Assembly (NCBI GenBank): GCA_027922465.2
Contig: BQMF02000043.1
Span: 186,001-250,000 of the forward strand
Source: Turritopsis dohrnii
Taxonomy: Eukaryota > Cnidaria > Hydrozoa > Anthoathecata > Oceaniidae
Length of the DNA: 64,000 bases
Reading direction: 5' to 3'
Part shown: one piece after another, positions 1,500 through 38,839 of the stretch
Layout: every line of letters starts with the position of its first letter
How positions within the stretch are numbered: position 1 is the stretch's first letter
Made by a program: the position numbers and the translations under genes
Notes under the pieces: generated by a model
What the model saw: only the letters and a program-made list of their open reading frames with translations
Databases searched by the model: none
Told to the model about the DNA's origin: nothing

Positions 1500-2726
1500 G
1501 TCTAGGCAACATTGTCACCAAGTGCGAAACAAAACTAATATGCCAGTATAGAGAATCATTGGAGCTCATTGCTTCATAATTAGAACACACTATATCTATA
1601 TCTTTTTTGTAATGGGCATTTTCAGGGCCAATGCCAAAGCACTTAAAACGTACATCAAGTTTGAAGGGAAAAACTGTTAAAATCTTTCCAAGGGCTATGG
1701 ATCATTTCTCATGGAATCATCTCTCATAGAAGAAGAGATTGGATTAAAACCTTTGGAGTTCTAAGGCCTCTTATCATTCTTGAATTGAGCAGTACTTCTT
1801 ATCGATCTCCAATAATGAATGGATGTGTTACAGATGATGGGTTATAGTTGAGTATTTACAAGACCATGCATATCCAAAGAAGAACATCTGAACAAAACCA
1901 CATAAGCAAAAGCGGTTCCTGATTTTGTTATTCTTCTCAAAAAGTCGTTTGTTTGGCATTAAATTTGCATTGTGTAACAAAATAATCCTTCAAGGAGACT
2001 TAATTATATAAACATGTTCCCAACCTCACAAGATGACTGATCAAGCAAAATTTAAACCAGCATTTAATACTCCTCTTTTGGTAACATGAGATATCTATTT
2101 AATATCATTTATAATTTCGTGTTTAACACATGTAAAGAAGGAAAAGTAATGATGTCAGAATAATGTTGCTTACCAAGCACTTGATAGCTTGATAGATATC
2201 TTATTCTTGTATTCTTGTACATTTGACGAGTGCACAAGCACGAAACTCGGAGTTATGTACTCATTTTAGGTTTTTAGTTTTATGATTTGAAAGATAATTT
2301 TATATTTTAATGTACCTTGCTCTGGTCTTTTACCTTACCATTGAGCACTCTGCAAACATTGGTTCAACATTGAAATAGATATCTTATCTATCATATTATG
2401 GTAATGAGGATATGGGAGGTGATTTTCAACTTTTTACAGCGGTTGCAGATAAAAATTGCTGGTTCTTAAGTTTAATAAATCTGAGAAATGCTTCTTAGTA
2501 GTGCTTTTTGATTATTTACTTGAAATCAAGTATCAAGAAATTTCTTTATTTGTACCTGGTTCTTCACATATTTCAATCCTTGGCTCCAAATTTTCTGCTA
2601 TTACTTCATTTAATTGATATTCCTTGATTATCATCTAAACAAATCAGACATGTATTTTGTGAGTGTAAACTTTACAACTACAAGTCCAATGGAGATACTC
2701 GGAGGATTGAAGTTTAATAAGTTACT
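1500..2726. other. No recognisable gene
   Basis: AT-rich sequence with no long frame, clear repeat or RNA gene that I can support. Confidence 0.5.
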
Positions 2727-3955
2727 AGTATCCCGTGTAAAAATTTTTTACGGGTTTTAATTCTGAAAGTGACGTCTCAAAAATGGTTTCGAAAAATTAA
2801 ATCACAGCATGACGAACAGAAAGGGTATCAGTGCTGTAAGTACTTTAAACTTTAGATATAGGAGCGCAGAACAGTCGTTTTACTTGGAAGATCTTAAACC
2901 CATCAAAAATAAAAATACGCGCTGCGTGTGCATCGGCTTTTTTTCACTTTGTAAAATAAAATGTATCGATTGAAGATGCAATGCAATGGTTGCCCGTGAT
3001 GAAAAATCTAACGTCAATACGAAAAAAAAAACACTTCTCACCCTTTTAATTAAGAAACTCTAGGTATTCCAGCTAAAGCATTTTTAGTTCACTATCAACA
3101 CTGGAGTTATGAACAGAAAAACTTTTTAATCGGAAGATCTGACACACATCAAAATATTCATAATACATCTTTCATGATAGTAGTAAAAATAAATTGTGCT
3201 AACAGGAAAACAACAAAAATGCTGGATAAATAAACTGTGTTCTAACTAAATAGATCTATAATATTTTAACTTTGGTTTAACTTCAAACAAAGAGAATATA
3301 CCTATCCATACTAATTCACATCATCGTGTTAATAAACAACAACATCTTCTTCAGCCATTTTCAAACACTTATAAACTCTGTACTTTCCATATTTCATATC
3401 TGAAAACAAAATAATTATACTTTAAACTACTACTAATTTAAACTACTACTTTCCAGCACACTTTCCTACTGTAAACATATACTTATGTAAACATATACTT
3501 AAAACACTTAAATACTTAAAACACTTTCTTCTGCTATTTCTTTTCCACTGAAATTACGCTACCATATTTATACACTGAAAAACATAAAACTACTTTCTTC
3601 GTTTGGAAAAACTGCTTTTATGCTTATGTGAGGTAACTTTCTCTATTTTGCAGAAGATTTTCTACTATAAACATACACTAAATACCTCTGTAAACTTTCT
3701 TTTCTTTCCAGTAAGTGTAGTAAACCTTTCACCTTTCACCTTCGTCTGCTTCGTGCTAAACTGTCTGTAGACTACGGGATTTACTAACGGATTCCGTCGG
3801 CAACCAATCAAAACGGCGAAAAAATAATTTCTTGCGTTTTGATTGGCTTAAAAATAAATGACGTTAGATGCCCCGTGCTATTATACTAATCGTGAATGTG
3901 TCTTGCGTGGTCTAACTGCCGCTATATGACCACGATTAAGAAGATTTTGGCCGTA
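2727..3955 (-). mobile_element. Internally deleted relative of the 28.9-36.7 kb element (inverted)
   Basis: Both ends match the large element in the opposite orientation. The left end (2727-2765, CCCGTGTAAAAATTTTTTAC followed by GGGTTTTAA) matches the right terminus of the large element near 36625-36663. Segments at 2880-2945 and 2960-3085 match 36250-36345 and 35935-36050. The stretch 3882-3955, containing GTGGTCTAACTGCCGCTATA, matches 28882-28960 reversed. The coding interior is absent. This is the pattern of a non-autonomous deletion derivative. The exact terminus near 3955 is uncertain. Confidence 0.65.
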
Positions 3956-4517
3956 AATTTTTAAAAAAACCATCACTCTCTAAGTTAAATGTGTTACACA
4001 CGATTGCGGATTATTATAAGTAGATGGAGTTTAGCTTGCTTCTGAATCATTTCGAAATGACAAGCCTGTGAACAACCTGGTCTTTTGCTATAATCTTCAA
4101 TTGCTAACTCGGTACCGAGCTCGGTAATCTCAGAATTTTTAAAAAAAATTGCTAGATTTATAATTTCCATTTTTCAACTGTTTTATCTATTTTAGCGGTC
4201 TCCCAAGCTTCTGATTCGCTAATAGTTCTCTTTGCAAAATTTCCTGTAACATATCCTAGATATTTCTTTTTACTTATTTTTTGAAAAGTTTTTAGCATTT
4301 TAAATGATATTTCGAGGGATAGTAGGTCTCGCAAAGTTGTTTAAGAATTTTTTCAACATTTTTTATAACTCTATTTGATGGGGCAGATATTTTGATTTAA
4401 GAATCATCAAATTATTTAACAAAAAATTATGATATCATAAGACAATATTTTGTTGATACCATAACTTCATTCCTCTATCAATGAACACAGTCAACATAGA
4501 TTGGAAGAACTTTCTAT
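3956..4517. other. No recognisable gene
   Basis: AT-rich sequence; nothing supportable beyond short poly-A and poly-T runs. Confidence 0.5.
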
Positions 4518-27250: not shown

Positions 27251-28375
27251 TCAATCAAAGAGAGAGCCACTAAAACGATCGGTTTCTAAAATAAATGTAA
27301 TAACATGATTTAAAATGTCTCGATTTTCATTTACAGACAAAGATAAATCGCCAAAAAGCAAAAGTCGTCCTAAAGATTTTAGGTTTAGTGGCATAAATAC
27401 AGCATCTACAGTTCTGAGGTTGTCAAACAGCTCGAGTCTTTGGTTTGAAAAGTCAGAGCATTGTCATAGGTAATGTTCGGTTGTCTCAATAGAATTTGTT
27501 CTACAAGCACAAAAGGGGTCGAGCGTATCAAGAAACCCGTGCCTAAATTTATGTTCACGAAGATGACTAAACCCAACCCTTAACCGAGTAAGTAATACAA
27601 GGCCATAATTGTTTTGGACTCCAAAAGTTGGCGACGGCTTTGGACGGATGAATTCAAAGATAGCACGCTTAAAACTAGAAATAGAAGGGAGATCACGTAT
27701 ACGATGATCCAAGCTATTCCACTGATTGATACAAGATGGAAAGAAAGAGTTACGATAGCGTTCAGTACGAGCCTCCATTGGATACACAGGAAGTCTCAAT
27801 CTGAGATTGGCAGGAGCTTTATTCTGAATAGGAATCAAGTCAGACAAATATCTTGGGGCCATTCCATTCATAATTTTGTAGAAAAAGAAAAGCCTTCGGC
27901 TTTGACGTCGGTCGGCCAAGCTCTCAATACCCAGCTCAGAATAAGGCTTCTCCCTTGAGATCCCACGGATGCATCCGGTAATAGCTAGACAGGCATTATA
28001 CTTAACAGACTCAAGTTTTTGCGAAAAAGTGGCGTTGCCTGGATTATCGTATATGATATCTCCATAATCTAAATGAGGTCTAACGTAAGCCTTGAATATG
28101 GTTAAGAGAGCACTTCGCGATAAATACTTGCGAAGTTTATTAATAAGGCCGATGCCTTTGTTTGTTTTCTGAGTTTTCCCATTGAGATGACAATCGAAGT
28201 TTAGCTTAGCATCCAGGACAAGTCCTAAATGCTTTTGACTATTAGAAGAGTGTATTGGAGCACCATTGAAGGAAATAAGCGGAACATTAGCTACAGCAGG
28301 CCTTTTTGAAAAATAGACTCCAACCGCCTGCTTTGAAGGATCAGGATTAAATGACAACTTCCATTGATGAGCCCA
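27251..28375 (-). pseudogene. LINE reverse transcriptase C-terminal part, one in-frame stop
   Basis: The frame covers the RT thumb and C-terminal domain: a HLGLVLDAKLNF motif, YVRPHLDYGD, a NQWNSLD motif, and a Cys/His element (FCACRTNSIETTEHYL) near the end. A TGA near 27464 interrupts the frame, which then stays open to 27251. The catalytic FADD region is lost to 5' truncation, so no active enzyme can be made. Confidence 0.9.
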
Positions 28376-28386
28376 TGTTCATACAT

Positions 28387-28881
28387 AATATGCAACTTAC
28401 ATAAAACGATGCTTCAGGGGCGGTCGGTAAAAGATGAGGTTTCAAAATAGCACCAAATCGGATTTGAATCGGATTTTCCACTATACAACTTCTGCTCAAC
28501 CTCGATTTTCAACTCGTCAGGAAAGCATACTAACGTTAAGAAATGCTTTATTTTGATAAGAAACAAAATTCAATTCTCTTCCCAATAATGAATGAATGAT
28601 GAACTTCTTCAGAATAGCATTTTATTAGCTATATGAAAATGTATGAAGATGTCTTCAACGAGAACTTTACAAACAAGTTATTATTTGTCTATTTATTGAT
28701 GTTTGGGGCATTTATCAGATGGCTGAGCTGTCGGTTTGACACTTCAGATGTAGTGCAATTTACTAATAAGTTTTTAAGTTTTATTCTTCTTTTTTTTTTT
28801 TTTTTGATAATCTTTATCTATATTCTAATACGCGCTTTGCATCCAGTTTTTAGTTTAGTGAGTGAATGTTTCGGGTCGTTT
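28387..28881. other. No recognisable gene
   Basis: AT-rich with a poly-T run near 28790; nothing supportable. Confidence 0.5.
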
Positions 28882-30115
28882 TTCACGGTCAAAATCTTCT
28901 TACTCGTGGTCATATAGCGGCAGTTAGACCGCGCATGACACATTCACGATTAATATAAGCAGAAGAAACCCTCACAGCGCATTTTATCGTTTCAAATGTT
29001 TTGATTGTTCGCAAGATCAAGAATCGATAGCGTTGACGTTCGTTTGCCAGCAAGTGTTCATTTGCTATTTTGAAAAAGAGGTAATGAAACATACGAGAGT
29101 AAGAAATCTCAAGACAACGAAGTTAGTAACGAAAGTATTGCACGAAGATTTATTAATGTTTTTAGGGTAAATACGCTCTTGAACTTTTTTTGTTTGTTTT
29201 GTTTATAATATAAATAGGGTTTCTGCATCATTACTTCTCCTTTAGGGAAGACCAATAAAAACAATGAACTTTGAAGAAATGAATTTTAAATCATGAGGTT
29301 CTGGATTGGTTCGAAGGTATTAATTTGTTTTGACACGTTTACGACTTACGGTTTTGGCTTTTCAAAATAGCTTCTGTTTACCTTGGATTTTAATCTTTCT
29401 GTTGTTTTCATGTGCGCACAATTTATTTCTAGATCGTATCGTGAAAGGATTTAATATGAGTATTTTTTATGTGTTTCAGATCTTCTGAGTAAGTAAAAAG
29501 ATATGTTTATGATGTGCGGTGTTGATAATGAACTAGTCAGGGAGCTACGGTCACAAAAAAATGCAAAACAAACAATGTTTTGCGGACCTTCTAAAAGCTC
29601 AATAGTTGGATTCACTAGGATTCAATAAACAAAAATCAATTTACTGGATGTCTTAAAAACACTGAAGAAGCCAGGAATAATCAAAAATCAATGCATCAAA
29701 TTTGTTCAAGCTCCAACTGACTTTTCATCCGACATGTTGCCTTCCACGTTCTTTTTATGACGCATAAATTAAATCTTTCGAATGTCATAAAAATCTCGAC
29801 AAAACAAAACAGGGGGTTTAACTTATATTTAAAAATTCAAGGATTTAAGTAATTTTCAGTATTTATTTATTTTGATTAAAATTAAAACGAACTTTTTTTA
29901 TTGTTTAATATTGTTTGATAGATTGCGAAATAATTGATCGCAAAAGCGTATAAAAGGAAAACTAAAAAAAGTACCAACCCCCTGTCAGAATATAACGCGT
30001 AAGATCGAATGTAGAAGCGGGAGAATTAATTTTGTAAACAAACGAAGTTATGAAAAACGTGTGTATGATGAAATTTGTAGATGGTATTTATTGTAATCAT
30101 TTATTGTAATTTGCA

Positions 30116-33100
30116 ATGAAAAGAAAACAAAGGTTGTCTATTGAGAGCAAGCTAAACAAAACTGCTAAAAAAGAAGACTGTTTTATTCACCATATTTACC
30201 ACTACAGCAACAATTTAAAACTGCGGAAGCTGACAAAGACTTCATATCTTCGATTACGACATGCAAGGTTTGTAACTTTTCTTTTAAATGATTGTTACTA
30301 TTACTACGCTCTGTTTATGATCTTTTTTTCTTTAGCCAAATTCGTAAAGATGAAACTGTAATTCAGCTCATCGATACATGTAAAGTTGATGGAGAAGAAG
30401 TGATTTCAGATCTTGTCTTTCATCAAAAATGTTATGATGTATATACACATTCGGGAAGTATAGTGGCGCTTGAAAATGCTAAAGATCACGAAAGTTTGAC
30501 ATCAGAAAAGAATGATAACGGTGAAACGGAAAATGAACGAAGATCGGCCCGTTAAAAAGATCGCGGAGGTAAGCTCTTGACATTCAAATTGTTTTGTTTT
30601 GGTGTATATAATTTCCAATCTTAGAGTTATAATACAGTATTACAAAAAAATAGTTCCTTTTCTTTTTTAACACTAGGACGTCAAATCGCAGATTTTGAAT
30701 GCTGCATCTGCTTTACGAAAAAAGTTAACAAGGGGCTAACGGCAGGCTATGAAAAGTTAGAAAAAGTTACGACGGAAGACGGTGCAGATAAAATAAAGAG
30801 AAAAGCACTCGATAAAATGGACAACCAGCGACTAATGGCATATGTAGCTGGTCGCAGTTTGAATGAAATCATTTCTTTGGAACTGGTATATCATAAATCT
30901 TGTTGGCGAAATTACACCAGGGAAGAACGGGCAAAACAAGACATTGATGATGACACAATACCGCCCTTCCATCAACGAAAAAATTGACGCCGTTGTTGAA
31001 GTCATTCGAGAAGAAATTAAGCAAGCAAATCCAACATTTGACTACTGGCCCCCGGACGCAGATTCTTTGCTTGACTGCTCAACAGACATCCCACCAACTT
31101 TATACAATTTCATTAAGAAAGTTTGTCATCAAAAGCTGGGCAAAATCTCGAAAAGAAAGAGCACTGTCATCGATTCCATTTGTCAAGATATAATTTATCT
31201 CTCCTCAAACGGAAAAACCCGAACAAAGAAACATTCTTACTTAAGTCTTTGTATCAAGCGTATGACTGGCTCAAAGGAAACTGTTACCTGGTTGAACCGT
31301 CTTGGTCATGGTATATCATACGATGAGGTAATTATTGGTAAAATCTAACTGTATATTACAAACTTGTAGACATTTTTTGAAGCCTAAAAAATAATTGTGC
31401 TCCCATATTCGAACTAGGTGGCTGTACTGGAGACTCAATTGGCTGAGGCATCTATTTTAAACGCGCAATCAAAACATTTCTGTCCACGAGCTCTTTTCCC
31501 TTCTACTTTCTTAACGTTCATTTGGGATAATAATGACGTCAATCCCGAGTCAATATATGGTCGTACTATGCATTGCACAAACGGTATCATTGCACAAATC
31601 CCTTCTGGTGCAACTGGAGAACCTTCACTTTTACAGAAACCCACCGGAAAACGAAGTCGCTCATTTAAGCCAGTTAACAACGATATATCCAAGTATATAG
31701 CTCGTGAACGAACTTCTCCTCAGGTTGATTTTTCAAATGTTACCTTGGATATTTCTGAAGTTCAATCAGGTTTTCAGAGCTCGACTTGGATAGATTTGTT
31801 ATGGATACTGTTGCAAACAATCGATGAAGAACGCATTCCAGATTGGACTGGTTTCAATTACATGGTGTTTAAAAGCGATCACATGGAACCTATTCACAAA
31901 GTACATTACTTACCTGCTATAAATCTATCCCCTACAAAACACGATGCAGTTTTAGAGCTCCTCGTTCAATCCAAATGTAAAGCAGAACATCTTGGTTTGA
32001 AAGAAACCGACATTGTACTTGATCAAGCTATATATGCAAAGGCTGTTGAAATTCTATCCAATCCGTCACATGCTGATCTTCGTGATTTTATCGTCCTCAG
32101 ACTTGGCGCTTTTCACACAAGTTGTATCTTTTTAAGTGTTATTGGAAAACGTTTTGAAGATGCTGGGCTGCGTGACTGGATTCTTGAAGCTGACTTAATT
32201 GGTAACTTAAAAATGTTTTTCTACTAATCGTACCATTTTGTCTAAATTCTTTTCAGTCTTTTTTGAACAAATTTTTCAAACATCTTTTAACTTATGTTTT
32301 TCCTTCAGGCAAAGGTTCAGTTGATAGAGTTCTCGCTGGGAAACATTACAATTACTGTTCACGTATTTACAAAAGTCTGTATTCTGCCATCACTCGAATG
32401 CGGTTACAAAGTTTTCAAGAATGGCTCACAAAAATGGGACATCCAGATGTTGTTGAAATATTTTTAACAAGTAGTGAAGTTGCTGACTGTGTCCTTGAGG
32501 TAAGTTGGAATTTTTATGTACTTTTTTACAATTTAGTTAAAGACAATAAGTATAATCTGTTTATTTTTTTACGTTTTAGTTGACATCTGCAAGTTTTGAA
32601 GAAGCAGTTTCATGCCATGAAGATCTTACCGCAAAACTTGAGGAGCACTCGACTTATATAAAAGACGGATCATTAGGGCCTACAGCACAATTTTGGTTTT
32701 CTTTTGTCGAAATGCTGGACATTCTATTTGCCTTCATACGAAGTGTCAAGATAGGTCATTGGGAATCTCATTTGTGTGCTACAAGAAAGATGCTCCCATG
32801 GTTTTTCGCGTATGATAGACCTAATTACTCCAGATTTGCCACACTTTACCTTGACGAGATGAGAAAACTTCCACAAACGCATCCAGGAATTCACAACGAG
32901 TTTATGTAAGGAAATTTTTTCAGTTTACTTGCCGGATAGATATTTTTTAAAATTTAGTACATTCAAGAGGCGTTTTAAGCAGTGAGAATTATCGAATATG
33001 GTTGAATTTATTTATTTCTCAGGGACGAAAAATTCTCCATACGAAGGTCAGAGGGTTCTTTCAACAAGGTACCATCCGATCAATGTATTGAGCAGACAAT

Positions 33101-35478
33101 CAACCGGGAGCAAAAGTGCCGTGGAGGGATAACTGGCTACAGTACTTCAGATGGGACAGTTCAAAGATGGGTCCTGACAAGCCACACTGTTGCTCAATGT
33201 ATCTCCATCACAAAGAATGATTTGGTTTTAACCAAACAGAAGTCGATACCAAAAGATCTTGGGAAATCCAGAATTCTTTTTAATAACCAATCAGCTGCGA
33301 GGGCATATGAAATCCTCAACAATTGGGGAAATCCTTTCGAAGAAAAAAAAGTCTGATCAATATCTGTTCTGGAATCGAAGCTACTGAAAAAGTAAAGTCA
33401 GACTTACTCAATGCTCAATCATTAGGTGAATCTGCATTGAAACATTTCTGTGTTTATCGTTTGAAAACCACGACTGCTCCGTTATCCGGCACACCAGCTA
33501 CGTCATCCGAAGATCCTTCTGACATTCATGACGACTCTTCATCATCTACTGATGCTCAAGCTACATCATCGAAAAAGATTGATTTTTACGCGAAAATTGA
33601 CAACTTGAAACTCAGTACTTTTGGCTCGATGAGTGTTAAGAAATCGGTGAAGATCAAAGACAAATCGGTTATTATTGCAGCTGAAAGAAGCATGTTCGCA
33701 AGACTCATGACGATTGCACAAACACGGAGTGGATTAAGTTTGAAACAGATCTTGTGCTATTCCCTCAGTCCAATCCCGTGGTCATTGGGTTTGCCAGACG
33801 ATAGTTATGTGAAAACTCAAAAATCAAAACTTCTCGGTATGTAATATTTGATCCAAATTATGTGACAAAATTTGTTCCTCATTAATTTTTTTTTGCAGAC
33901 TAAAGAAATATTTTCATTTGTTTTCACAAATACAGGTGAGTTAGAATCAGAAATTGGGAACACAACGACAGATCCTCCAGCCAGAAGTGTTTGGATATAT
34001 GACGGGATGGTTTTACTTCAAAAGCTACAAAAACAAAACCTGCCAACATTTGGAGACGTTTCAACCTTTCTTTTAAAGAAAGTTACAAAAGAAAATATCA
34101 GCTATTTTGTGACCGACCAGTACTTAGAAGGTTCGATTAAATCTTTTGAAAGAGCGAAACGTTCAGAAACTGGAAGCATACGAATTCAAACCCAAAGAAG
34201 AGATCAACCGCGTCCTAAGCAGTGGATGAAGTATTTGCGCGATCCCAGAAACAAAGAAGAGCTTATTTCATTCTTACTGAAAGACTGGACAGATGAGAAT
34301 CGTTTCCTCGAAGAGCTATGTGGAAAAACCCTGTACATAAACAACAAATCATCATTCTACAGAATTACTTGCAATGGCAACGAGGTAATAAATTGTATTA
34401 AGAGGTAATTGTAGTATTAAAGTTACACATCAGGCATTTATTACGTGGCCGACTTTCAAACTTTTAAATTTGCAAAAATCAATTAACTGTATATAGGTGA
34501 TAATATCTATTTTTTCATCAATAGGTTGTCTGTGAATTTGTCCCAGGTTTAGAAACTACACAAGAGGAAGCTGATACTAAAGTGTTTTTGTGTACAAAAC
34601 ATGCTCAAGACCAGCACTCTTCGTCTCAAAATCAACCATCCGGTGTCATTGAAACCGTGGATACTGACATCGTGGCCTATGCAGTTTATTTCCAAGTTCA
34701 GCTGACCATTAAGCTGTTCTTAAAAGTTGGTTCCGGAGCAAAAAAACGGACCCTCAAAATTGAAAATATTACGACCAAGCTTGGAAGGGATTGCAGTCTT
34801 GCTCTTCCAGCTTTCCATTGTTTTACTGGAACTGATTATACCAGTGCCTTCTATGGTATAGGAAAGTCGAAAGCACTTAAAAAGATGAAAGAGAGCGACG
34901 AGTTAATCCAGACTTTTAAGAGACTTGGCAATTCGTTCACATTCAACATGTGTCTGTTCTCCTCTATTAATAAGTTTGTTTGTGCGCTTTATGGAGTTAA
35001 TGTGGACTCTGTCAATGAAGCCAGATATTTGAAGTTTTGTTCAACAAAAAGAACTCCTGAACCTCAACAACTTCCGCCAACCGAGGATGCCTTGTTGTGC
35101 CACTGCAAGCGAGTTTTGTATGCTACTGCAGTTGCTAAAAAGGCATTGCTGCTTAACCCAAATGTTCCAGCAGTTGAAAAGACTTATGGGTGGATAGTTG
35201 AACAAGGAAAATTGCAGGTTCAGTGGATCCTTTTGCCTCCTGCACCCGATGATGTGATAAATTTAGTCTTTTGCTCTTGCAAGAAGTCAGGTTGTAAGAA
35301 CCGTATTTGTGCATGTAAGTCACACGGACTCAAATGCACTGATCTATGTGGTTGCACTCAAATCTGCGAAAACAGACCAACAGAAGATGACTTTTTTTAT
35401 GATGGTGGTGAAGACGCTTCGAGTGATGAAGAAATTGACGTGGATGGTGACGAATGCGATCTTATTAATATTTATTAA
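30116..35478 (+). CDS. FEN1/XPG-like nuclease protein with N-terminal Cys/His modules and C-terminal CXC domain
   Basis: I infer nine exons from frame and splice sites: 30116-30267, 30336-30568, 30677-31327, 31418-32201, 32309-32499, 32580-32905, 33023-33836, 33936-34384 and 34525-35478. Frameshifts near 30545, 30975 and 33347 make this copy probably non-functional. Two N-terminal modules end in FHQKCYDVYT and YHKSCWRNYT, probably zinc-binding. A long helical middle has KHYNYCSR and NPFEEKK-type motifs of a widespread transposon-like family. The C-terminal third shows ordered acidic motifs: DGM (34001), Asp at 34115, EEAD (34564-34575), DTD (34660-34668), GTD (34828-34836), then YGIGKSKALKKM. 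These resemble the FEN1 catalytic residues and helix-hairpin-helix in order and spacing. A Cys-rich block (35272-35373: CSCKKSGC, CACKSHGLKC, CGCTQIC) is a tesmin/TSO1-like CXC DNA-binding domain, followed by an acidic tail. The FEN1 reading is my inference; family members are usually annotated only as uncharacterised. Confidence 0.7.
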
Positions 35479-35929
35479 TTTGCTTAGCTGAAACATTGGT
35501 TATTGATCAAACAACTTCATTGTCCTTTAAGAAAAACACGAATATTTACGTTTTAAATCGATTTTTCATAAGCTAAAGAACGTCTTATAGCACCAAACGT
35601 ATATTTAAGTTATGACGTCATCACCTCATTTAATGACCTATATCTCTTGAAATATTGATTATTACTGTATGATGTAATTGTAAATTTTGATCGGTATTTA
35701 ATTAGCTATCGATTGGTGTTAAAAAAAATGAATTTCGCTAAAAAAATTTTTTTGCTTTACCTGTGACGTCATCAAAAGCTAAAATTAGCTACTGCCACGC
35801 CCTTCAGTAATTTTAAAATCTCCGGTAAAGATTTTCCTACTCGAAATAAGTTGTTTTATCGATCTGAACAAAATTTAAAAGGTCCACACGTTTTCCAATA
35901 AAAAAATGACCCTAGCGCCCTGACTAAAC

Positions 35930-36663
35930 AGGTAAAATGCTTTATCTGGAATACCTACAGAGTTTTTAATAAAAAGGGTGAGGAGTACTTTTTTCCACTT
36001 TGACGTTGCATTTTTTTAATCACGGGGAACCATTGCATTGCATCTCGAATCGTACAAAGCGCTTTTCGGAAGATATTTCGAGAACTTCATTTTGATGGTC
36101 CATGCAACATTGGTAGGGCTGTGATGTTTGATCGTAGACATCTCGGTAACGGTTACTGTATTTTACTGTACTTTCTCAACATCGTTCCGTGATTAAAATT
36201 TTTGTGGCCATTTCTGAGACGTTATTATTTTAAAATCAAAACACGTAAAATATTTTACAAAAGATAGAATTTATTTTACAGAGTGAAAATAGCGGATGCA
36301 CAGCGCGTATATTTTATTTTTGATGGGTTTCAGATCTTCCAGGTAAAACGATTTCTTTAGCGCACTCCAGTGAAGTTTGCAAACTTGGAAAATGTTTTAT
36401 CTGTGTCTATTTTAAGTGGGCCTTTAAAATCAGGGGAATCATCGCATTGCCTCCTAAATTAGATTCGAAGTTATTAGGAAAACATTTCTAAAACCTCTAA
36501 GAAAATAACAGGTATTTTTATGGTTCGCGTTATTGACGAAGTGGTGACTACAACACTAATGCACTTTCTGTTTGTCATTTTGTAAATTAATTTTTCGACA
36601 CCATTTCTGAGACGGCATTTTCAGAATTAAAACCCGTAAAAAATTTGTACACGGGTTACTAGT
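35930..36663 (+). repeat. 3' subterminal repeats of the large element
   Basis: Two diverged direct copies of about 300-400 bp. The second is the terminus shared with 2727-2765. Confidence 0.5.
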
Positions 36664-38119
36664 GCTCCATAATCTCGTGCTGTACCGAGTTTTAACATTA
36701 GTACGGAAGAAACTGTCTGTAATACATATTACCACTTATTACTTATATAGAAAGACTCCTTAATGGAGAGTTCAAGCATTTGAAAGCACTCGATAACATC
36801 GTGCGTGTGAGTGCATTATATTTCTAAGAGTGACCAGTGGAATGTTTACAAGATCGTGCTTTACGTAATGTGTCTTCGTTTCCAATATTGTAAAATTTGA
36901 ATTATGTTGTAAATTCACATGCAATGTTCTGCTTGTGTTTTGAATTGGAAGAAGTACCTTAAGGGAAGAAGTTGTTTTTGTAAGAAATATGTGTAGAACA
37001 GACTTTTACGGAATTTGATGGGATAAAGTACGTCACAATAGCGCGTGATTCAGTAAACCCCTCTTATCAACGGATTACATTTTTATCAGTAAAACAAACA
37101 TACAAGACTAAAAGCTGTAGATGCAAAAATTACATAAAAAGAAATTCAAATAAAGTTTATAAACGTTCACACGGAAATTACGTAATAGTTAATGCACCAG
37201 AACTTTTGCCTTATCTAATTTAATTCCAATGACGTGTTATTAGTCATCCACAATACTTAAGCTCATCAATATGTCGGCTATATGTACAGGTCTGCATATG
37301 TAGAAGGTCAAATCTGCTTAAGTTACATTATTACGTTTAATGGCAAAATAAAATAGCAATATGATATATGTGTAGCTACCGAAAATAAAAGCTATAAAGA
37401 CAATATCCTTTTTCCAAATAAATCATAAAGCCACCATCAATTTTCAGGCTGGAAGTTGTAAGTCTTATACTCTGGCTCCGATTGAGGCTTGAAATCGCTT
37501 TTAGAGAATATTTAACAAATATTAAAGAATTCTTAAATAAAAAATACAACAGAACAAACTCGAAAAATGCTTAGCAAACTTCTTTTCAAAATGTGCAATT
37601 AACCTAAATGCAAGAAGCATCTAACGTTGGACTGCGCCTTTTTGACTGACCAAGAACATACTGATGAATAACTTGATCAGTATGTTCTGGTTGTCCTTAT
37701 AAATCATGTTCGATATAGTCTCTTTTAAGCGATCAAAATGTAATTTTGAGTTCGAACTTTTGATTAAATAGATACATCAAAACTTTCTATTTCTTCTAAA
37801 GATATACTTTATTGTTAGCAATTTCAAGGGAAGAAAATTTTGAGTTTTCGTGATTTTTTCGAAAAATCTTAAATTCCACTATTATCAAGGTTATTTTCCG
37901 AATCGCAAAAATTAATTTAACCTTCTGAATCGCGAAAACTAACTCCACGATTTTGTTTTCAAATAGCAAAGTTTCTTTCTTCAAAGATATCTTACAATAA
38001 CGCAACAGGTATTAAGTACTTATTATTTTTTTTTTATTTATTTTTTTTTTGATAATGCTTTCGTGTTGTACGGTCATGCTCTAGTGTGCTCAAAAAAGTG
38101 GGCAAATAATTAAATTGAT
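36664..38119. other. No recognisable gene; one small hairpin
   Basis: AT-rich. The only notable structure is a hairpin at 37650-37690. Confidence 0.5.
37650..37690. repeat. Short near-perfect inverted repeat
   Basis: Arms CCAAGAACATACTGAT and ATCAGTATGTTCTGG pair with one bulge around a loop of about 10 nt. Confidence 0.7.
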
Positions 38120-38125
38120 TTGAAC

Positions 38126-38839
38126 ATGGCTGCTAATACAAGAAGTAACAAGAAAGCTTCGAGCGATTTTGAAGAAAATATAAACAAGAAACTTGATGAA
38201 CTGGCTGTATCCGTTGCTTCACAAGAAAGTATTGATGAGCTGAAATCTTTATTGACCCTTCAAAATGTAAAGATAGAAAATCAGAATAACGAAATCGCTG
38301 CTCTGAAGGAACATATCTCATCACAACAAAATCAAATTAACCGTCTCGAGGATCGTCTTGCTGTTGTGACATCTGATATAACTGCTGTGAAGGTGCATGC
38401 TGATAATAACGAGGAGTACTCTCGTAGGCATTGTTTACGAATAAAAGGAATAGAGAAGGGTCAAAACGAGACTTCGTCTGCCTGCAAGGACAAGGTTGTG
38501 AAAATGTTTAATGATGATTTAAATCTAAATATCAGTACGAATGACATAGACCGAGCTCACAGGATCGGCAAAGACGGGAAAGGTATGATTGTTAAGTTCT
38601 ACTCATTTGCTAAAAGGACCTCTGTCTACAGAAAACGAAAAGACTCGTCCCTTAAAATTCGTTTGGATATCACCAAAACAAGGTTGGATTTACTTGACAA
38701 GGCTAGTTCTATCATTGCTAACTCTGAGTCAAACATTGATTATGTTTTCGCAGACATCAACTGCAATACTGTTGCAAAATTTATAGATGGAAAATACAGA
38801 TTCTTTAATTCGATAGAAAGTTTCAATGAGTTTTGCTAA
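38126..38839 (+). CDS. LINE ORF1 protein (coiled coil plus RRM-like)
   Basis: An intact frame of about 237 residues from ATG 38126. Residues 15-95 form a heptad-rich coiled coil, expected to trimerise. Residues 95-190 have the YSRRHCLRIKGIEK start and DIDRAHRIGKDGKGMIVKF segment typical of the L1-type ORF1 RRM domain (Transposase_22 family), followed by a basic C-terminal domain. It would be an RNA-binding chaperone of a LINE ribonucleoprotein. ORF2 starts about 600 bp downstream but is broken and 3' truncated, so this LINE cannot move alone. Confidence 0.85.
   Translation: MAANTRSNKKASSDFEENINKKLDELAVSVASQESIDELKSLLTLQNVKIENQNNEIAALKEHISSQQNQINRLEDRLAVVTSDITAVKVHADNNEEYSRRHCLRIKGIEKGQNETSSACKDKVVKMFNDDLNLNISTNDIDRAHRIGKDGKGMIVKFYSFAKRTSVYRKRKDSSLKIRLDITKTRLDLLDKASSIIANSESNIDYVFADINCNTVAKFIDGKYRFFNSIESFNEFC

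What the first reader, a model, noticed from the sequence alone, without database searches (positions are those of the whole stretch)
28882..36663. Transposon-like element encoding a FEN1/XPG-like nuclease fused to a CXC DNA-binding domain
The nine-exon gene has acidic motifs in the order and approximate spacing of FEN1 catalytic residues (DGM; Asp; EEAD; DTD; GTD, then a GIGKSKALK helix-hairpin-helix-like segment). It has two Cys/His modules upstream and a tesmin/TSO1-like CXC block downstream. An inverted, coding-deleted copy at 2.7-4.0 kb shows that the DNA around the gene has moved or been copied. A structure-specific nuclease, not a DDE enzyme, could be the mobility protein, or it could be a processing partner. 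The motifs are seen; fold and role are inferred.
Basis: partly seen in the sequence, partly recalled or inferred. Interest (0 to 1): 0.88.

Follow-up and report, generated by a model that had tools for sequence, protein, structure and literature searches.

The report
Jumping gene with transposase plus flap-nuclease
The sequence holds a worn copy of a transposon whose single large protein joins a cut-and-paste transposase to a DNA-repair-type flap nuclease; this fits a known but little-studied transposon group, and the copy sits inside a second, unrelated mobile element that was mistaken for its ends.

The parts
29534..35926 (+). Inner TIR transposon carrying the gene (6393 bp)
   Evidence: 20-bp TIRs, 18/20 matching (repeat I2); 5' end matched from its first base in 11 of 13 genomic hits, 3' end to its last base in 8 of 8; both counts include the window itself
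29534..29553 (+). 5' terminal inverted repeat TAGTCAGGGAGCTACGGTCA
35907..35926 (-). 3' terminal inverted repeat (TAGTCAGGGCGCTAGGGTCA on the minus strand)
29531..29533 (.). Target-site duplication, left copy (AAC)
   Evidence: empty sites hold one AAC
35927..35929 (.). Target-site duplication, right copy (AAC)
30116..35478 (+). Transposon gene; exons 30116-30267, 30336-30568, 30677-31327, 31418-32201, 32309-32499, 32580-32905, 33023-33836, 33936-34384, 34525-35478; broken by a stop at 30553-30555 and by frameshifts near 30961-30977 and near 33345-33356
   Evidence: Splice sites and phases; exon model made by hand, supported by alignment to P0001 (49% identity, 100% of the searched region 230-1480 covered)
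31418..33104 (+). DDE transposase core, limits approximate: D382 31526-31528, D385 31535-31537, D547 32021-32023, GAFHTSC 32105-32125, D798 33078-33080, E802 33090-33092
   Evidence: positions; fold of relatives P0023 and P0004
33818..35178 (+). FEN1/EXO1/XPG-like nuclease, limits approximate (about residues 1045-1418): D1073 34001-34003, D1111 34115-34117, E1215 34567-34569, D1217 34573-34575, D1246 34660-34662, D1248 34666-34668, D1304 34834-34836, GIGKSKA 34855-34875
   Evidence: fold of relative P0023
35269..35373 (+). Tesmin/TSO1-like CXC block
   Evidence: PF03638 slightly below cut-off here, above it in homologue P0002
30415..30906 (+). Parts of two N-terminal Cys/His modules (VFHQKCY 30415-30435; CCICF 30700-30714 to YHKSCW 30889-30906)
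   Evidence: sequence and family consensus; the first Cys pair looks worn in this copy (by eye)
28817..36662 (+). Outer Helitron-like non-autonomous repeat (28817-29533 + 35927-36662) that holds the insertion
   Evidence: 5' TC, 3' hairpin and CTAG, T after 18 of 18 3' ends found
2724..3957 (-).

Best explanation
A decayed member of an abundant, recently active TIR transposon family of AcademX type, in what is most likely a cnidarian genome. One protein of about 1,500 residues has N-terminal zinc modules and a winged helix, a DDE (RNase H-like) transposase, a FEN/XPG-class structure-specific nuclease and, here, a CXC DNA-binding block. Shown: both domains by conserved acids and predicted fold, TIRs, 3-bp TSDs, empty sites, near-identical copies at different loci. 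Inferred: the DDE domain recognises the TIRs, cuts the 3' ends and joins them to target DNA with a 3-bp stagger. The nuclease processes a branched intermediate of the same reaction, most likely by trimming the non-transferred 5' strand or flap at the transposon ends, or by opening an end structure before gap repair.
Confidence: 0.82

Rival explanations
1. The element is a TIR transposon with DDE plus FEN nuclease, but of a superfamily of its own rather than Academ.
For: Academ membership was judged by architecture and TSD length only; the best structural match of the transposase is the P element, and 8 of 22 homologues match DUF6589, a family of unknown function.
Against: DDE with a nuclease and 3 or 4 bp TSD is what the passages say of Academ/AcademX; mean Academ length of 5565 bp in curated bivalve elements is near the 6393 bp here.
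Confidence: 0.13
2. The nuclease itself is the mobility enzyme and the N-terminal half is only a DNA-binding or structural region.
For: The seven FEN acids are conserved, the fold is complete, and Foldseek found no transposase for the N-terminal half at E<=0.001.
Against: The N-terminal half has an RNase H strand/helix order with D, D and E identical in all rows with letters, transposase matches by VIA, and TIRs with 3-bp TSDs, which are signs of a DDE enzyme.
Confidence: 0.03
3. The outer repeat (28882-36663) is the mobile unit of this gene, and short copies are internal deletions.
For: Short copies share both ends with the region.
Against: The joint of short copies is the insertion point with one AAC in 22 of 29 loci; the inner ends recur at unrelated flanks, 11 of 13 and 8 of 8 hits, window included.
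Confidence: 0.01
4. A host gene of FEN/EXO1 type or a domesticated transposase.
For: A large spliced gene with a repair-type nuclease.
Against: 126 matches to exon 9 in this genome, a few of them pieces of one copy, lesions in this copy, TIRs and TSDs.
Confidence: 0.01

Closest known systems
Academ superfamily, AcademX lineage (Kojima 2020 as cited in PMC10045372; first description by Kapitonov and Jurka is recalled)
   Same: Nuclease-encoding lineage with 3 or 4 bp TSD (passage); Academ counted as DDE/D with mean length 5565 bp in bivalves (passages). That the nuclease is called XPG and that a Cys8 zinc finger was noted are recalled.
   Different: No direct sequence comparison was possible; whether published members have a CXC tail and TAGTCAGGG ends is not known here.
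AcademH lineage
   Same: Same superfamily as AcademX.
   Different: Encodes a helicase and makes 9 or 10 bp TSDs; here nuclease and 3 bp.
FEN1 / EXO1 / XPG / GEN1 nucleases
   Different: Fused to a transposase; about 9-13% identity in those matches; not named by Pfam.
P-element transposase
   Different: 9% identity; P element makes 8-bp TSDs and has no FEN nuclease (recalled).
KDZ transposons (Kyakuja, Dileera, Zisupton)
   Same: Recalled to pair a DDE-like domain with CXC-type modules.
   Different: Recalled to lack a FEN nuclease; no KDZ family among matches at E<=0.1.

Membership tests
Academ superfamily, AcademX lineage | DDD/E transposase | tested here: met
   D, D, E identical in rows with letters; RNase H-like order; P-element, ISCth4, Hermes matches by VIA (moderate); Foldseek silent at E<=0.001
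Academ superfamily, AcademX lineage | Encodes a nuclease (XPG type, recalled) | tested here: met
   [not shown]
Academ superfamily, AcademX lineage | 3 or 4 bp TSD | tested here: met
   3 bp at 8 of 8 distinct paired sites
Academ superfamily, AcademX lineage | Terminal inverted repeats | tested here: met
   20-bp TIR, 18/20
Academ superfamily, AcademX lineage | Transposase sequence groups with named Academ families in a tree | not testable with these tools
   No Academ reference sequences held; source paper not held
FEN/XPG nuclease superfamily | Fold and seven-acid active site | tested here: met
   on relatives; all seven acids present in the window protein too
FEN/XPG nuclease superfamily | 5' flap or 5' exonuclease activity | not testable with these tools
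   needs purified protein
Helitron (outer repeat only) | 5' TC, 3' CTRR with hairpin, insertion between A and T | tested here: met
   TC start; A before 20 of 28 5' ends, T after 18 of 18 3' ends; hairpin -6.1 kcal/mol, z -1.86, 10 of 200 shuffles as good, so the hairpin is modest
Helitron (outer repeat only) | Rep/Hel protein | not tested
   Non-autonomous copies; no autonomous partner sought
KDZ transposons | KDZ transposase domain | tested here: inconclusive
   No KDZ family among Pfam matches at E<=0.1 for 22 homologues; DUF6589 matched 8 of 22

The most novel reading that the evidence does not exclude
The fused FEN nuclease is a second essential transposition enzyme: DDE makes and joins the 3' ends while the FEN active site cuts the other strand or its flap. 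This would be a two-nuclease cut-and-paste mechanism in one polypeptide. It would explain why all ten acids are kept together from cnidarians to insects and unnamed sources, and why nuclease- and helicase-bearing Academ lineages differ in TSD length.
Probability: 0.35. Interest if true: 0.7.

Novelty: new member of a known kind. Interest (0 to 1): 0.4.

Why it matters
What a repair-type nuclease does inside a transposase is, in the passages seen here, only linked to TSD length. This family gives exact ends, 3-bp sites, empty sites and near-identical copies in one genome, so the question can be tested. It also corrects a nested-insertion error that would put wrong ends into a repeat library.

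Tried and rejected
Pfam scans do not name the nuclease or the window's transposase exons; DUF6589 appears only in relatives (8 of 22) and in P0002 it is below Pfam's cut-off, 23.7 against 27 bits. The sequence profile against PDB gave EXO1 only at E 0.068 and 0.019, so a fold comparison was needed. IMG/VR: 50 pattern matches, 0 confirmed relatives. Foldseek then gave winged-helix proteins first (E 0.26 and up) and nothing at E<=0.001.

Parts used: A2 held 22 of the 37 proteins; A3 39 and A5 37 of the 52 proteins found in two searches. Rows dropped before the ten-acid count: 10 of 39, for truncation or gaps; one of these, P0040, has N at the first FEN position, and one counted row, P0038, has I at the last. 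Two counted rows (P0035, P0037) have D in place of E. TSD pairing left out C351 and C46 (5' match starts at base 49 and 23) and C129, C430, C297 and C268 (no 3' match). C109 and C17 share flanks and count as one site. Seven of 29 outer repeats gave no empty site at up to 7 edits. Of 20 exon-9 loci read for the 3' end, 13 showed it. The count of TAGTCAGGGCGCT never ran, nor did the search with the outer repeat's 3' end or the XPG_I control.

Full report
What was checked. The exons hold: the junctions have GT/AG and compatible phases. The copy is broken, with an in-frame TAA in exon 2, a frameshift in exon 3 and another in exon 7. The read-through protein is 1517 residues.

Where the element really ends. 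Self-comparison gives five segments shared with the copy at 2.7-4.0 kb, at 75.5-92% identity, all outside 29536-35933. In the window's own genome (436 Mb, 891 contigs) the outer edge is a repeat with 40 matches from 40 scored of 545 candidates. Many of the fetched copies are about 28816-29533 joined to 35927-36663. At those two joints sits a 20-bp inverted repeat, TAGTCAGGGAGCTACGGTCA at 29534 and its partner ending at 35926 (repeat I2), and AAC stands on both sides (29531-29533, 35927-35929). The outer repeats hold the joined site with a single AAC in 22 of 29 loci at up to 7 edits. So the gene is in a 6393-bp TIR transposon that jumped into another repeat. The copy at 2.7-4.0 kb is a diverged repeat without the insert, 8 edits from the predicted empty site.

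Independent copies. The first 117 bases of the inner element match 13 places, 11 of them from base 1 with nine different flanks; the last 117 bases match 8 of 8 to the final base. The window is one hit in each. Copies that could be paired at both ends: C43 (window) AAC, C256 ATA, C109 and C17 ATC (shared flanks), C38 TTA, C202 TTA, C247 TTA. In another subfamily, C42 has AAT and C230 ATA. That is 9 of 9 paired copies and 8 of 8 distinct sites with 3-bp duplications. Among 15 loci diverged in exon 9 (L044-L058), 9 show the same end ...AGCGCCCTGACTA in the stretch held, at 53-54% identity; two of these nine are the C42 and C230 copies. The 20-mer TAGTCAGGGCGCTGGCGCCC occurs 8 times, its reversed control 0. 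L049 (C42) and L050 (C230) agree at 99.96% over 2753 bp; other pairs of that subfamily range from 97.5 to 99.9%. The 5' parts of C42 and C230 agree at 99.6% over 3662 bp, with unrelated flanks. The family has been active recently. Exon 9 gives 126 matches from 125 scored of 2117 candidates, a few of them pieces of one copy.

The protein. The first search found 37 homologues, the best an uncharacterised Hydra vulgaris protein, 49%; others come from Clytia, two octocorals, thrips, an ant and unnamed sources, down to 23-24%. A second search listed 19, 15 of them new. In alignment A3 (39 rows, P0023 numbering) the FEN-register acids are D765 33/34, D802 34/34, E904 30/32 (other two D), D906 33/33, D932 32/32, D934 32/32, D990 31/32 of rows with a letter; the N-terminal D110, D113, D278, H307 and E523 are 36/36, 36/36, 37/37, 37/37 and 39/39. 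Of 29 rows with letters at all ten catalytic positions, 28 are acidic at all ten. Of those 29, 12 passed a crude string test for a CXC tail (13 of all 39), and PF03638 matched 4 of 22 scanned. So the CXC block looks optional while transposase plus nuclease go together.

How it most likely works. Shown: DNA with TIRs moved, leaving 3-bp duplications, and the family protein keeps two sets of catalytic acids. Inferred: zinc modules, winged helix and CXC bind DNA; the DDE site cuts and joins 3' ends; the FEN site handles the second strand, a 5' flap or an end structure. The passage read in PMC10045372 says AcademH makes 9 or 10 bp TSDs, AcademX 3 or 4 bp, and that the difference seems related to the helicase and nuclease they encode. 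The label XPG and the Cys8 finger are recalled.

What it is. By architecture, TSD and TIRs it is an AcademX-type transposon; direct sequence membership could not be tested. Papers: PMC10045372, PMC10799480 and PMC10294476 were seen as passages only; Kojima 2020 was not seen. The ten library searches brought no held paper with both Academ and XPG as whole words, which says little, as the main source is not held.

Verdict. Good eye for the nuclease; wrong element ends and a wrong guess about the DDE enzyme. A member of a known kind, with an open and testable question about the nuclease's step.

Noticed in passing
28817-29533 + 35927-36662; loci L009-L038: Abundant Helitron-like non-autonomous repeat, 1.0-1.55 kb in 18 copies measured. 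Of the 8 of 28 5' ends not preceded by A, 7 directly follow a CTAG, as if copies stand head to tail.
   Followed up: partly
27464-28378 (-): 304-residue open frame that looks by eye like the end of a non-LTR retrotransposon reverse transcriptase; no Pfam match at 0.01.
   Followed up: partly
38114-38839 (+): 241-residue coiled-coil open frame (Tropomyosin and SlyX matches below their cut-offs), perhaps an ORF1-like protein of a retroelement.
   Followed up: partly
P0013, P0015-P0021, P0023-P0027 (alignments A1, A3): Unnamed relatives keep transposase plus nuclease but have an acid-rich tail in place of the CXC block (P0027 is truncated at its start).
   Followed up: partly
[not shown]
   Followed up: no
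Pfam PF20231 (DUF6589): A Pfam family of unknown function matches 8 of 22 homologues at E<=0.1, in P0002 over the transposase region; DUF6589 may itself be a DDE transposase domain.
   Followed up: no
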